Shown piece by piece: positions 1-33,560 of a stretch of 33,560 nt of DNA. A model generated the notes under the pieces. That model had not been told where the DNA came from. It saw nothing but the letters and a program-made list of their open reading frames with translations, and did no database searches. Source of the stretch: an uncultured Solirubrobacteraceae bacterium (GTDB lineage Bacteria; Actinomycetota; Thermoleophilia; Solirubrobacterales; Solirubrobacteraceae). Position 1 is the stretch's first letter. Every line of letters begins with the position of its first letter. The stretch is from assembly GCA_902806205.1 (NCBI GenBank), contig CADCVR010000028.1, positions 1 to 33,560 on the forward strand, written 5' to 3'. The translations under genes were made by a program, and so were the position numbers.

Positions 1-122
1 GGCTGGCACCAGACGCCACCCGATCCCTTGCCGATCCGTACAGGATCGGCTGCGGAAATCGTGCGGCGTCAGCCATCCACCCGAACCGCCGATCGACGGG
101 ACCACCTCGTGGAATCAATCAT
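1..122. repeat. Fold-back intergenic repeat, copy A (left end outside window)
   Basis: This is an imperfect palindrome centred near position 40. GCCGATCC (30-37) pairs with GGATCGGC (43-50) around the loop GTACA, and outer pairing continues (ACGCC at 13-17 against GGCGT at 65-69). It is homologous to copy B at 20555-20718: GACGCCACCCGA is identical (12-23 and 20606-20617), the centres match 12/15, and CATCCAC recurs at the same distance from the centre. Its right end (97-127) matches 26 of 31 bases with the right end of copy D (32728-32758), including the terminal repeat CGTGGAATCAATCAT at 108-122. If it is as symmetric as copy B, the full element is about 164 nt and begins some 40 nt before the window. 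The open frame through it, ending with TAG at 124-126, is probably incidental. Confidence 0.65.
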
Positions 123-197
123 CTAGCCCTCCCCGGGCCGCGTCAGGCGGCCGCGCGCTCGGCGGGGGGCGCCTCGGCCGCCGCTGCGGCCACGCGG

Positions 198-15255: not shown

Positions 15256-15298
15256 GGTCCGACTCCGTGACCGCCCGTTAGGAATCTGTGACCCGACC

Positions 15299-15343
15299 GG
15301 CGTGTGCCCTGATCCACCTCAGGGGTGGATCCGGGCACACGCC
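15299..15343. repeat. 45-nt stem-loop repeat, copy 1
   Basis: GGCGTGTGCCCTGATCCAC (15299-15317) pairs with 15325-15343 with a single mismatch (18 of 19), around the loop CTCAGGG. It recurs at 20404-20448 with 43 of 45 bases conserved, and the flanks GACC and GCCTCGG are also shared. It lies 27-71 nt past the cofE stop on the minus strand, so it may terminate the F420 operon. It also lies upstream of the nuclease promoter. No U tract. Confidence 0.75.
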
Positions 15344-15369
15344 GCCTCGGCCAGGGCGGCCCGGACGCC

Positions 15370-20384: not shown

Positions 20385-20716
20385 AGGGACGCTTGCACAG
20401 ACCGGCGTGTGCCCTGATCCACCTCAGAGGTTGATCCGGGCACACGCCGCCTCGGGCAGAGCCACCTCGACGCCGCCGGAACCGCGGGGTACCACGGCGA
20501 CGAGAACGTCACCCGCGTCCGCCGGCGCGGCCAAGGGGTTTTCGGACACTCCTGAGAACCTGTTTCGAAAAGGCGCGGCCGTGAGGAAACCGTCTCGCGG
20601 CAACCGACGCCACCCGACGCCGTCATCAATCCGAACAGGATTGATCACGGCATCGCGCGACGCCGGTCATCCACGATCCGGCTCCCTCACGACGGCGCCT
20701 GATTCCGAAACAGGTT
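20385..20716. other. Repeat-filled intergenic region between convergent genes
   Basis: This 332-nt gap between aacS and the RDD gene holds the second copy of the 45-nt stem-loop (20404-20448) and fold-back repeat copy B (20555-20718). Between them, 20449-20554 shows no convincing gene. A minus-strand frame there reads in a protein-like way, but it has no start codon of its own and runs into both repeats, so I do not call it. Confidence 0.6.
20404..20448. repeat. 45-nt stem-loop repeat, copy 2
   Basis: Same element as 15299-15343, differing at only two of 45 positions, with the same flanking bases. The arms 20404-20422 and 20430-20448 pair at 17 of 19 positions. It begins 20 nt after the aacS stop, a position suited to a terminator, though there is no U tract. 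Confidence 0.75.
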
Positions 20717-26659: not shown

Positions 26660-29019
<2,360 letters not shown>

Positions 29020-29023
<4 letters not shown>

Positions 29024-30478: not shown

Positions 30479-31398
30479 GCTCCGGCGCGCGGCCCGGCGC
30501 GGAGGCCGCGGTCCGCGAACGGATCCCCGACGTCGAGACGCTCACCCGTCGCCTGGGCGAGGCCGACTACCTGGCCGACGAGGGCCTGGCGACCGCGCTG
30601 TTCTTCGCGATCGGGCTGCCGCAGCCGCTGCTGCTGGAAGGCGAGGCGGGCGTCGGCAAGACCGAAGCCGCCAAGGCGCTTGCCACCCTGCTGGACACCC
30701 CGCTGATCCGCGTGCAGTGCTACGAGGGGATCGACGCCTCCGAGGTGCTCTACGAGTGGAACTACCCGCGCCAGCTCCTGCGGATCCGCCTGGCCGAGAC
30801 CGATCGCGGAGGGCTGGCCGAAGAGCAGCTGTTCGGCGACGACTACCTGATCCGCCGGCCGCTGCTGCGCGCGATCGAGCACCCGGGACCGCGTCCGGCG
30901 GTGCTGCTCATCGACGAGCTCGACCGGGCCGACGACGACTTCGAGGCCTTCCTCCTGGAGCTGCTGGCCGAGGCCAGCCTGACGATCCCCGAGCTCGGGA
31001 CGATCACCGCCTCGCACCCGCCGATCGTCATCCTCACCTCCAACCGCACCCGCGACCTGCACGATGCGCTCAAGCGCCGGTGCCTGTACCACTGGATCGA
31101 CTATCCGAGCGCGGAGCGCGAGGCGGAGATCGTGCGCCGGCGCGTGCCCGGCGCGCCCGCGGAGCTGGCGGCCGACGTCGCGGCCGCGGTGCGGAACCTG
31201 CGCCGCGAGGAGATCCAGAAGGCGCCCGGCATCGCCGAGGCGATCGACTGGGTCGCCGCGCTGAGGCTTCTCGGCGTGCAGCGCCTCGACGCCGACGCGG
31301 CGGGGCGCACGCTCGGCGCCGTGCTCAAGTACCGCGAGGACCAGGACCTCGTCCGCGAGCGTGGCCTCGAGTACCTGGCGGTCGGCGATGGCGACTGA
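30475..31398 (+). CDS. coxD: CoxD, MoxR-family AAA+ ATPase
   Basis: 307 residues. A MoxR-type AAA+ chaperone required in known systems, with CoxE, to build the sulfur-copper part of the CO dehydrogenase active site. It has Walker A GEAGVGKT near residues 56-63, Walker B VLLIDELDRAD near 143-153, sensor 1 in VILTSNRTRD near 184, and the arginine-finger region LKRRCLYHWIDYP. The start is the GTG at 30475 that overlaps the stop of the mobA-like gene. It overlaps coxE by 11 nt. MoxR ATPases and VWA proteins typically act as pairs, and that pair is intact here. Confidence 0.93.
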   Translation: MSSGARPGAEAAVRERIPDVETLTRRLGEADYLADEGLATALFFAIGLPQPLLLEGEAGVGKTEAAKALATLLDTPLIRVQCYEGIDASEVLYEWNYPRQLLRIRLAETDRGGLAEEQLFGDDYLIRRPLLRAIEHPGPRPAVLLIDELDRADDDFEAFLLELLAEASLTIPELGTITASHPPIVILTSNRTRDLHDALKRRCLYHWIDYPSAEREAEIVRRRVPGAPAELAADVAAAVRNLRREEIQKAPGIAEAIDWVAALRLLGVQRLDADAAGRTLGAVLKYREDQDLVRERGLEYLAVGDGD

Positions 31399-32599
31399 GC
31401 CGCGCGGCCGACTCGCGCCCGCCGAGGTTCCCGCGCTCGCGGCCGCCTTCGGACGCGCGGTGCACGACGCCGGTCTGCCGTGCTCCCCGGAGCGCTCGGT
31501 GCGCTTCGCCCAGGCGCTCTGCCTCGCGCAGCCGAGAACGCGGGACCGTCTCTACTGGACCGCACGCACGGTGTTCGTCTCCTCGCGCGAGCACCTCACC
31601 GAGTTCGATCGGGTGTTCGCGATGGTCTTCGACGGTCTCGTCGATCCCTCCGGGCCGCGGGGCGACCGCACCGCACAGGCGTCCGCGGACGCCGAGCGCC
31701 GCCAGAGGGCGTCGCAGACCGGGGCGCCGGCGCTGGACGGCTCCCAGCCGGAGCCCGACCGCCCGAGCCGGGGCGTGTCGAGCGGCGGTGGAGTCCCGGA
31801 CCCCGACGCACCCGAGCGCGAGACCGCCGTGCCGGTCGCAGGCTGGGACGAGCGGCTGGCCGACAACGACTTCGGCGCCCTGAGTCCCGAGGAGCTGGAG
31901 GAGCTCGCCCGCCTGATGCGGACGCTCGAGGTCGCGACCCCGCTGCGCCGCACCCGGCGCGCCCGGCGCCATCGTCACGGCGAGCGTCTCGACGTGCGAG
32001 CGACGCTTCGCCACAGCCGCCGTACCGGCGGAGACCCGGTGCGCCGCGTGCGCCGCCGCCGCCGCCTCGAGCGCCGCTCGCTCGTGGTGCTGTGCGACAT
32101 CTCCGGGTCGATGGAACCCTACGCGCGGGCGTTCCTGCAGTTCCTGCACGGCGCGGTCGTCGCCGCCGACGCCGAGGCGTTCGTGTTCGCCACCCGCTTG
32201 ACGCGGCTGACGCTCGCCCTGCGCGGCGCCCAGCCGCAGGTCGCGATCAGCCGGGCCGCCGACGCGACGCCCGACTGGTCCGGCGGCACCCGTATCGGCC
32301 TCGCCCTGCAGCACTTCAACGACCGCTACGGCCGGCGCGGCATGGCGCGCGGCGCGGTCGTGGTGATCGTCTCCGACGGCTGGGAGCGCGGCGACCCGGA
32401 GCTCGTCCGGCGCGAGATGGAGCGGCTGCGCCGTCTCGCCTACCGCGTCGTGTGGGTCAACCCGCGCAAGGCCGCCCGCGACTTCGTCCCGCGCGCGGGC
32501 GGGATGGTCGCCGCGCTCCCGTCCTGCGACGCTTTCGTCGGAGGCAACACCCTCTCCGCCCTGGCCGAGGTCATCGACGAGATCGGGGCCCGGCGATGA
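31388..32599 (+). CDS. coxE: CoxE, VWA-domain partner of the MoxR ATPase
   Basis: 403 residues. The N-terminal 95 residues are helical. Residues about 95-165 are low complexity, rich in Pro, Ser, Asp and Glu (DGSQPEPDRPSRG). A very basic stretch follows (RRTRRARRHRHG, RRVRRRRRLERRS), and then a von Willebrand A domain from about residue 230. The VWA metal site (MIDAS) is intact: CDISGSM near 236-242, SGGTRIG, and IVSDGWERGD. CoxE works with CoxD in maturing the Mo-Cu site. The chosen ATG at 31388 overlaps coxD; an in-frame ATG at 31361 lies further inside coxD. Downstream, 170 nt with fold-back repeat D separates it from coxG. Confidence 0.93.
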   Translation: MATEPRGRLAPAEVPALAAAFGRAVHDAGLPCSPERSVRFAQALCLAQPRTRDRLYWTARTVFVSSREHLTEFDRVFAMVFDGLVDPSGPRGDRTAQASADAERRQRASQTGAPALDGSQPEPDRPSRGVSSGGGVPDPDAPERETAVPVAGWDERLADNDFGALSPEELEELARLMRTLEVATPLRRTRRARRHRHGERLDVRATLRHSRRTGGDPVRRVRRRRRLERRSLVVLCDISGSMEPYARAFLQFLHGAVVAADAEAFVFATRLTRLTLALRGAQPQVAISRAADATPDWSGGTRIGLALQHFNDRYGRRGMARGAVVVIVSDGWERGDPELVRREMERLRRLAYRVVWVNPRKAARDFVPRAGGMVAALPSCDAFVGGNTLSALAEVIDEIGARR

Positions 32600-32619
32600 C
32601 CGCCCGGCGTCCCGACCGG

Positions 32620-32753
32620 ATGGGTTGTTTCACGGATTCGCCGGTGGCGATCGACGTCCCGGCCGGCACCCTGAAGCCCCCGATCCCCCGACGATCCACC
32701 AGAACTGCCTTCGGGACCGCTCATCGCCGGGACCGCCTCGTGGAACGACCCAT
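32620..32753. repeat. Fold-back intergenic repeat, copy D (inside the cox operon)
   Basis: Ends are inverted repeats ATGGGTTGTTTCACG (32620-32634) and CGTGGAACGACCCAT (32739-32753), 13 of 15 complementary. Interior segments also pair (GGCGATCG-ACG-TCCCG on the left against CGGGACCGCTCATCGCC on the right). The right end matches copy A at the window start at 26 of 31 positions. It fills the coxE-coxG gap. A 53-codon frame (32596-32757), coupled to coxE by ATGA, runs through it but is probably a by-product of the repeat. Confidence 0.65.
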
Positions 32754-32769
32754 CTAGCGAAGGAGCCCC

Positions 32770-33560
32770 ATGGAGTTCGAGAACACGTTCCTGGTGCAGG
32801 CCCCGGTCGAGGAGGTCTGGAGGCTGCTGCTCGACGTCGAGCGGATCGCCCCGTGCATGCCGGGTGCGCAGATCCTCGAGCAGACCGCCGAGGACGCCTA
32901 CAAGATCGCGGTCAAGGTCAAGATCGGCCCGATGACCCTGAACTACAAGGGGGACATCGAGATCGTCGAGAAGGACGGGGAGGCACACCGGGCGACGATG
33001 CAGGCCAGGGCGAAGGAGGCGCGCGGGCAGGGAACGGCGAGCGCGGAGATCGTGATGTCGCTCAGCGAGGAGCCTGGGGGGACGCAGGCCTCGATCGTCA
33101 CCAGCATGAAGATGAGCGGTAAGGCGGCCGCGATGGGCCAGGGCGTCATCAAGGACGTGGCGGGCGCGCTCACCGCCACGTTCGCCCACAACGTCGCGGG
33201 CTTGATGGACGCGGGGGGCGCCCCGGCCGATCAGCTCGACGCCGCGCCCGTCGGCGAAGTGACAGATGCGCCGTCGAGCCTTCCGGCCGGCGCGGAGGCG
33301 GCTGCCCTGGACGACCCGGCGCGATCGCAGGGGAACGCGATCCCGCCGACGGAAGCGCCGGTGGCCCAGGAGGCTGGCGCCTCGCCGCCGCCGGAGCCGT
33401 CGTTTCCGCCGGAGCCGTCGTTTCCGCCGGAGCCGTCGTTTCCGCCGGAGGCGTCGTTTCCGCCGGAGGCGTCGTTTCCGCCGGAGGCGTCGTTTCCGCC
33501 GGAGGCGTCGTTTCCGCCGGAGGCGTCGTTTCCGCCGGAGGCGTCGTTTCCGCCGGAGGC
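32770..33560 (+). CDS. coxG: CoxG, SRPBCC-family CO dehydrogenase partner, 3' end outside window
   Basis: At least 263 residues; the gene runs off the window. Residues 1-150 are a CoxG/SRPBCC lipid-binding-type domain (FENTFLVQAPVEEVWRLLLD, CMPGAQ, KVKIGPMTLNYKGDIEIVE, SMKMSGKAAAMGQGVIKDVAG). CoxG proteins tie CO dehydrogenase to the membrane and are implicated in delivering its electrons to quinone. Residues 150-205 are a Pro/Ala/Glu-rich linker. From about residue 207 an 18-nt tandem repeat encodes a hexapeptide PPE[PA]SF, continuing past the end. A membrane-binding C-terminal helix, common in long CoxG forms, would lie beyond. A strong AAGGAG five bases before the ATG shows independent translation after the repeat-filled gap. 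Confidence 0.92.
   Translation, partial: MEFENTFLVQAPVEEVWRLLLDVERIAPCMPGAQILEQTAEDAYKIAVKVKIGPMTLNYKGDIEIVEKDGEAHRATMQARAKEARGQGTASAEIVMSLSEEPGGTQASIVTSMKMSGKAAAMGQGVIKDVAGALTATFAHNVAGLMDAGGAPADQLDAAPVGEVTDAPSSLPAGAEAAALDDPARSQGNAIPPTEAPVAQEAGASPPPEPSFPPEPSFPPEPSFPPEASFPPEASFPPEASFPPEASFPPEASFPPEASFPPE
33388..33560 (+). repeat. 18-bp tandem repeat in coxG (PPEPSF x3, then PPEASF)
   Basis: Nine complete 18-nt units (33388-33549) plus a partial tenth, cut by the window end. Units 1-3 have CCG (Pro) at codon 4 and units 4 onward have GCG (Ala); otherwise the visible units are identical at the nucleotide level. This near-identity points to recent expansion by slippage or unequal exchange. Copy number is likely variable between strains and prone to assembly error. 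Confidence 0.95.

What the first reader, a model, noticed from the sequence alone, without database searches (positions are those of the whole stretch)
32600..32769. Fold-back repeat sits inside the CO dehydrogenase operon between coxE and coxG
All genes from coxM to coxE overlap or nearly touch, but coxE and coxG are separated by 170 nt filled by repeat D, after which coxG has a strong own ribosome site. The hairpin could end or slow transcription, be an RNase processing site, or stabilise the upstream mRNA, so that coxG, the membrane partner, is made at a different level from the enzyme.
Basis: partly seen in the sequence, partly recalled or inferred. Interest (0 to 1): 0.55.

Follow-up and report, generated by a model that had tools for sequence, protein, structure and literature searches.

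The report
Old transposon relic between CO-oxidation genes
The hairpin between two genes of a carbon-monoxide-oxidation operon is an old, decayed copy of a small hitch-hiking transposon that is scattered through this bacterium's genome, so it is most likely an accident of insertion rather than a purpose-built gene switch.

Summary
The fold-back repeat is real: 32616-32757, 142 of the 170 nt between coxE (stop 32597-32599) and coxG (ATG 32770). It is not peculiar to this operon. It is a decayed member of a dispersed family with ends like CTAG-ATGAGTYGTTCCACG: a young ~172-bp subfamily (28 places at 94% identity or more) and older copies (11 examined, this one included). Elements of 1006 or about 1026 bp with such ends in a same-genus genome encode IS982-type DDE transposases, so this is an IS982-type MITE (miniature transposon). 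No such transposase was found in the window's own draft genome. In the 6 sister loci where coxG directly follows coxE (of 59 examined) the gap is -4, -4, -4, -4, 11 or 31 nt, without the element; removing it here leaves 32 nt. No U-tract follows the hairpin, so intrinsic termination is unlikely. Effects on coxG (lost translational coupling, mRNA processing) are possible but untested. Side result: the CTAG target is often a TAG stop codon; 15 of 20 full elements and 17 of 25 testable young copies abut a gene whose stop lies in the end CTAG.

The parts
31388..32599 (+). coxE (VWA CoxE-like protein; alternative upstream start 31361)
   Evidence: Pfam VWA_CoxE E 1.7e-57; ORF
32600..32615 (+). remnant of the original spacer, left of the insertion (16 nt)
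   Evidence: sequence; comparison with sister junctions; inference
32616..32757 (+). MITE copy, old subfamily, 142 nt including both target copies
   Evidence: 73-81% identical to 8 other old copies and 70% to a young copy over 54-142 aligned columns; fold z -2.81
32616..32619 (.). CCGG, inferred decayed left copy of the CTAG target
   Evidence: many other copies have CTAG here; inference
32620..32634 (+). left terminal inverted repeat (ATGGGTTGTTTCACG)
32739..32753 (+). right terminal inverted repeat (CGTGGAACGACCCAT)
32754..32757 (.). CTAG, right copy of the target site
   Evidence: target role inferred
32759..32765 (+). Shine-Dalgarno-like GAAGGAG of coxG, outside the element
32770..33560 (+). 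coxG, runs off the contig end within an 18-nt tandem repeat
   Evidence: Pfam COXG E 1.2e-19
1..126 (+). second MITE copy in the window, young subfamily, cut by the contig end
   Evidence: 99% identical to the 172-nt copy on contig 51; end at 108-126

Best explanation
[quoted passage not shown] It inserted into a CTAG site in a spacer of about 32 nt between coxE and coxG and duplicated the 4-bp target (the left copy has since decayed to CCGG). Shown: family membership, ends shared with transposase-bearing elements, absence from sister junctions. Inferred: transposition by that transposase, the 4-bp duplication at this copy, and the consequence, namely that coxG is no longer overlapped by or next to coxE and relies on its own ribosome site behind a long mRNA hairpin. 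I expect little or modest effect on transcription.
For: Dispersed family in the own genome: 51 places match the 19-nt end at up to 3 mismatches against 2 for the reversed-pattern control; 36 matches to the young 172-bp copy at E <= 1e-5 (40 of 70 candidates scored, so a lower bound). Homology in the interior and not only at the ends: 73-81% to 8 old copies, 70% to a young one, over 54-142 aligned columns. Similar ends on 1006- and about 1026-bp elements in G007 that carry a DDE transposase; the 1026-bp element repeats the T/G difference between the two ends that the 172-bp MITE shows, with one A-to-G difference in its left end. Transposases match the IS982 model NF033520 at 170.3 and 145.7 bits for two of three, cut-off 130; best plasmid relatives, 43-44% identical, are in part annotated 'IS982 family transposase'. 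Sister coxE-coxG gaps -4, -4, -4, -4, 11, 31 nt in the 6 loci with adjacent coxG and no element there, although one of them (G035) has ends of this family elsewhere. 170 - 142 + 4 = 32 nt for the inferred empty site. CTAG as target: 35 of 72 tested element ends are the in-phase TAG stop of a flanking gene against 4 and 0 of 72 in the two wrong phases; at the pcrA copy the stop in the end CTAG lies at the conserved C-terminal position.
Against: No IS982-type transposase was found in the window's own draft genome (one search gives 22 matches in G007 as positive control), so the mover is lost, lost in assembly, or another one. The 1026-bp element's transposase scores 122 bits, below the cut-off of 130. 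The left CTAG is CCGG, so the target duplication cannot be read at this copy. None of the 10 pcrA relatives read has CTAG itself at the stop (TGA or TAG after another base; one pcrA match stopped short), so no true empty site with CTAG was seen. The six sister junctions come from other genera of the family (CoxE 57-66% identical); no same-genus genome with this gene pair was found.
Confidence: 0.9

Rival explanations
1. A control element of the operon: the hairpin ends or slows transcription, or is an RNase-processing or mRNA-stabilising site, so that coxG is made at a different level from the enzyme. It could also be a by-product of the insertion.
For: Real 18-pair outer stem and z -2.81; the other junctions are tight; coxG has its own GAAGGAG site; one weak terminator-like match, none expected in shuffles.
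Against: Absent from the 6 sister junctions with adjacent coxG; same element at many unrelated loci; no U-tract after the right arm; predicted openness of the ribosome site with and without the element depends on the folding window.
Confidence: 0.15
2. A REP/BIME-type repeat moved by a REP-associated tyrosine transposase, not by a DDE transposase.
For: Short dispersed palindromes, many at gene ends.
Against: The ends are terminal inverted repeats also found on elements that carry an IS982-type DDE transposase; the two ends pair with each other in the predicted folds.
Confidence: 0.03
3. A chance inverted repeat in GC-rich spacer DNA.
For: Fold of the wider 191 nt does not stand out (z -0.81).
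Against: Arms: 2 found against 0.02 expected; 51 end matches genome-wide against 2 in the control.
Confidence: 0.01

Closest known systems
MITECca01 of Cardinium (IS982-derived MITE; PMC9769881, passages seen)
   Same: short transposase-less repeat (about 240 bp) with inverted repeats very similar to those of an IS982-family element, many copies, mostly intergenic
   Different: other phylum and sequence; there intact parent copies are in the same genome, here transposase-bearing elements are seen only in relatives; the phrase 'target site' does not occur in that paper's main text
IS5 of E. coli (PMC11677980, passages seen)
   Same: 4-bp target duplication, sites such as CTAG and CTAA, bias to intergenic sites
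   Different: another transposase family: the IS5 models score far below their cut-offs here
Correia/NEMIS and ERIC repeats (recalled; no paper on them was seen, one search listed nothing useful)
   Same: short dispersed palindromes that can be co-transcribed inside operons and can alter mRNA processing or stability
   Different: different sequences and hosts; any RNase III cleavage here is untested

Membership tests
MITE | short, no transposase gene, terminal inverted repeats | tested here: met
   142 nt, ends 32620-32634 / 32739-32753
MITE | many dispersed copies with homologous interior | tested here: met
MITE | ends shared with a transposase-bearing element | tested here: met
   1006- and about 1026-bp elements in G007; none found in the own genome
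MITE | target-site duplication at this copy | tested here: inconclusive
   right CTAG, left CCGG; other copies have CTAG at both ends with no consistent further direct repeat
MITE | mobilised in trans by the transposase | not testable with these tools
   needs a transposition assay
IS982 family (of the putative parent) | transposase matches the family model above its cut-off | tested here: met
   NF033520: 170.3 and 145.7 bits against 130 for two of three; the third, of the 1026-bp element, 122, below it, and 55-56% identical to the other two
Intrinsic terminator | compact GC stem-loop followed by a U-tract | tested here: not met
   no T-run after the right arm; only a weak 5-pair site overlapping the left end
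REP/BIME | mobilised by a RAYT transposase, hairpin within each unit | not tested
   RAYT genes not searched; the ends pair with each other in the predicted folds

The most novel reading that the evidence does not exclude
In these GC-rich genomes CTAG is rare inside genes and often is a TAG stop codon. An IS982-type element with a CTAG target, and its MITEs, therefore land on stop codons, leave a stop at both ends and seed long mRNA hairpins at gene ends across the genome. In the cox operon such a hairpin, landed in a spacer CTAG, has uncoupled coxG from coxE and reset the ratio of membrane partner to enzyme.
Probability: 0.2. Interest if true: 0.55.

Novelty: new member of a known kind. Interest (0 to 1): 0.3.

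Why it matters
It removes a would-be regulatory element from the cox operon and names what is there. The family is still of use: a transposon whose 4-bp target is in practice often a stop codon can insert without breaking genes, and that would explain why hairpins pile up at gene ends in this lineage. In Oligotropha, coxG mutants still grow on CO but more slowly (PMC4240915, abstract and passages), so a changed CoxG level could in principle be tolerated.

Tried and rejected
The whole-window repeat list (25 of 151 inverted pairs shown) did not show the coxE-coxG hairpin; pattern searches did. Reading-frame tests for the target duplication in 20 elements of G007 were ambiguous because long open frames are common in GC-rich DNA, and the codon-score version gave mixed answers (0, 4 and 8 bp); they did show genes ending exactly at the element. 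BLAST hits of the element in the 29 other family cox loci (best 82% over 39 nt in L105, E 8e-5, then L103 and L095 at 0.042) were looked at: no terminal repeats of this family at either side, and by eye the stretches look like coding sequence; taken as chance similarity. The one genome-contig scan gave only distant CoxE relatives (30 loci, 36-51% identical), none with coxG directly after coxE. Rfam gave only three tRNAs in the window. Ribosome-site accessibility gave no clear answer. RNA covariation among the 10 aligned copies: 2 of 15 pairs with changes on both sides, covariation term +0.65; not taken as evidence for an RNA function, since transposition alone keeps the two ends matched. A plasmid search with the transposase (845 records, all below 60% identity) added only the family name. 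Literature searches turned up an IS982-derived MITE in Cardinium; among the titles and abstract starts listed I saw no paper on this family or on an IS982 element with a CTAG or stop-codon target. I opened three papers, passages only.

Full report
WHAT IS THERE. The spacing is as described: coxE ends with TGA at 32597-32599, coxG starts with ATG at 32770, 170 nt apart, while the junctions from coxM to coxE overlap or are 2 nt apart (some starts chosen by my script). CoxE and CoxG are confirmed by Pfam (VWA_CoxE E 1.7e-57; COXG E 1.2e-19). The fold-back repeat runs from 32616 to 32757. Its 17-nt left arm (32619-32635) returns inverted at 32738-32754; two matches at up to three mismatches against 0.02 expected. 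The 142-nt element folds better than 198 of 200 shuffles (z -2.81); the minus strand gives z -1.85; the wider 191-nt region does not stand out (z -0.81).

A DISPERSED FAMILY. BLAST of the spacer against the own genome (G000, 3.38 Mb, 108 contigs; the window is all of contig 28) gave other copies at E 4e-15 and weaker. The 19-nt end CTAGATGRGTYGTTCCACG at up to 3 mismatches gave 51 places (25 forward, 26 reverse) against 2 for the reversed-pattern control. Two subfamilies appear. The young one is 171-173 bp in intact copies, near identical, with ends CTAGATGATTGATTCCACG and CTAGATGAGTGATTCCACG; a search with one copy gave 36 matches at E <= 1e-5, of which 28 places are at least 94% identical over 103 nt or more (40 of 70 candidates scored, so lower bounds). 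I put 28 young copies through the gene-context script: 27 of those 28 places plus a shortened 70-bp copy on contig 105; left out were C58:4502-4673 and the 72-nt piece C24:77447. Nine of these 28 are cut by a contig end, one of them at the start of this window (1-126). The old subfamily (11 copies put through, this one included; some single-ended matches were left aside) has diverged copies of about 54-193 nt. The coxE-coxG copy is 73-81% identical to 8 other old copies and 70% to a young one in aligned columns. In 60 relatives plus the own genome, 26 of 61 genomes have an end (CTAGATGANTSRTTCCACG, at most one mismatch), the control pattern none.

THE PUTATIVE PARENT. The same-genus genome G007 (one contig) has elements of 1006 bp (17 with both ends seen, all 17 fetched) and about 1026 bp (3 copies) bounded by such ends. 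They encode DDE transposases (Pfam DDE_Tnp_1). Against the IS982 model NF033520 (cut-off 130) the 1006-bp element's protein scores 170.3, a copy in G029 145.7, the 1026-bp element's protein 122. The 1026-bp element has the same T/G difference between its two ends as the 172-bp MITE, but CCGCG for CCACG in one end. A profile of the three proteins matched in 10 of 61 genomes (22 matches in G007, one a fragment) but not in G000, nor did the single protein. So the mover is not visible in this draft genome. G057 likewise has 52 end matches, many in pairs 168 bp apart (interiors not read), and no transposase match.

THE EMPTY SITE. One search found CoxE-like matches in 134 of 146 genomes of the family; loci were given for the best 30, the own included. 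With the 30 more distant loci, 59 non-own loci were examined for coxG after coxE: 6 have coxG directly next, 15 have a CoxG homologue 1.0-2.7 kb away, 38 none in the stretch held. In the 6 adjacent cases (L087-L092) the gap is -4, 11, -4, -4, -4 and 31 nt and no element is there. One of them, G035, whose CoxG is the nearest of the six (75.5% identical), has ends of the family elsewhere in its genome. In the window, taking out the element and one target copy leaves 16 + 4 + 12 = 32 nt. The sisters are other genera of the family (CoxE 57-66% identical), so the time of insertion is not resolved.

THE TARGET. Intact copies carry CTAG at each end and no consistent further direct repeat. Two results say that CTAG is host sequence. 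First, with a simple codon-score test, 35 of 72 element ends tested are the in-phase TAG stop of a flanking gene, against 4 of 72 and 0 of 72 in the two wrong phases. Second, at pcrA on contig 24 the stop TAG lies inside the element's end CTAG and at the conserved end of the protein: the five same-genus relatives read (L206-L209, L211) stop at the same position, after ITKR or ITKK (11 of the 20 loci were read, and in L214 the match stops short). Against this, none of the 10 relatives read has CTAG at its own stop; they have TGA, or TAG after another base. A 4-bp CTAG duplication is thus likely but was not seen in an empty site. IS5 has a 4-bp target of the same kind (PMC11677980, passages).

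GENE ENDS. Counted by copy, 17 of 25 testable young MITE copies and 15 of 20 elements in G007 have a gene whose TAG stop is an end CTAG (15 of 20 also, with another gene-finder, shows 16 of 28 young copies). Of 15 other CTAG sites in own-genome DNA 5 are stops (Fisher P 0.05 against the MITEs), and of only 2 in G007 flanks 1. In the listing, 1 of 16 sites lies inside a gene (one of the 16, L029:118, is itself an element end). So much of the preference may simply follow from where CTAG occurs. The coxE-coxG copy itself is not at a stop codon: coxE ends 16 nt before it.

FUNCTION. As an intrinsic terminator it fails: no T-run follows the right arm and the outer stem encloses about 100 nt; the scan's only hit is a weak 5-pair stem overlapping the left end, and there is no sigma-70-like promoter. 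The gap has C 69, G 50, A 27, T 24, C-rich but not diagnostic for Rho. Folding with and without the element gave no consistent change at the ribosome site. The firm statement is structural: in 4 of 6 sisters coxE and coxG overlap by 4 nt, which allows translational coupling, and here they cannot be coupled that way. CoxG in Oligotropha is proposed to bring the enzyme to the membrane, and mutants still grow on CO but slowly (PMC4240915, abstract and passages), so a modest change could be tolerated. This is inference.

VERDICT. A known kind of thing, an IS982-type MITE (compare MITECca01, PMC9769881, passages), in a new place and lineage. Interest for the finding as posed is low to moderate; the CTAG/stop-codon landing is the part worth keeping.

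Noticed in passing
window 15295-15369 and 20400-20474: A second dispersed palindrome family (core 47-nt palindrome CGGCGTGTGCCC...GGGCACACGCCG), the two copies 89% identical; 24 matches counting both strands in the own genome, on this contig and 11 others. Different from the MITE family.
   Followed up: partly
window 33391-33560: coxG C-terminus is an 18-nt tandem repeat (PPEPSF/PPEASF) and the contig ends inside it.
   Followed up: no
L058:1501-1644 (G000 contig 24, 77447 onward): A young MITE copy that stops after 72 nt, exactly where a group II intron end begins (Rfam RF00029, 40.8 bits, gathering 40), with a reverse-transcriptase-like ORF beside it; about 50 nt left of this copy also occur left of the pcrA copy (L057), after a transposase-like ORF that looks IS30-type by eye.
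   Followed up: partly
G007 elements L172, L184; G000 L053: Elements sitting between two convergent genes, each with its TAG stop in one end CTAG: CTAG is a palindrome, so one site can be the stop of both genes before insertion.
   Followed up: partly
G007, G057, G000: Many MITE ends in draft genomes without a detectable transposase (G057, G000), and many transposase-bearing elements but no 172-bp pairs at one mismatch in G007.
   Followed up: no
window 26660-29023: coxL carries AYRCSFR, the form I CO dehydrogenase signature (motif recalled), so the operon looks like a genuine aerobic CO dehydrogenase.
   Followed up: no
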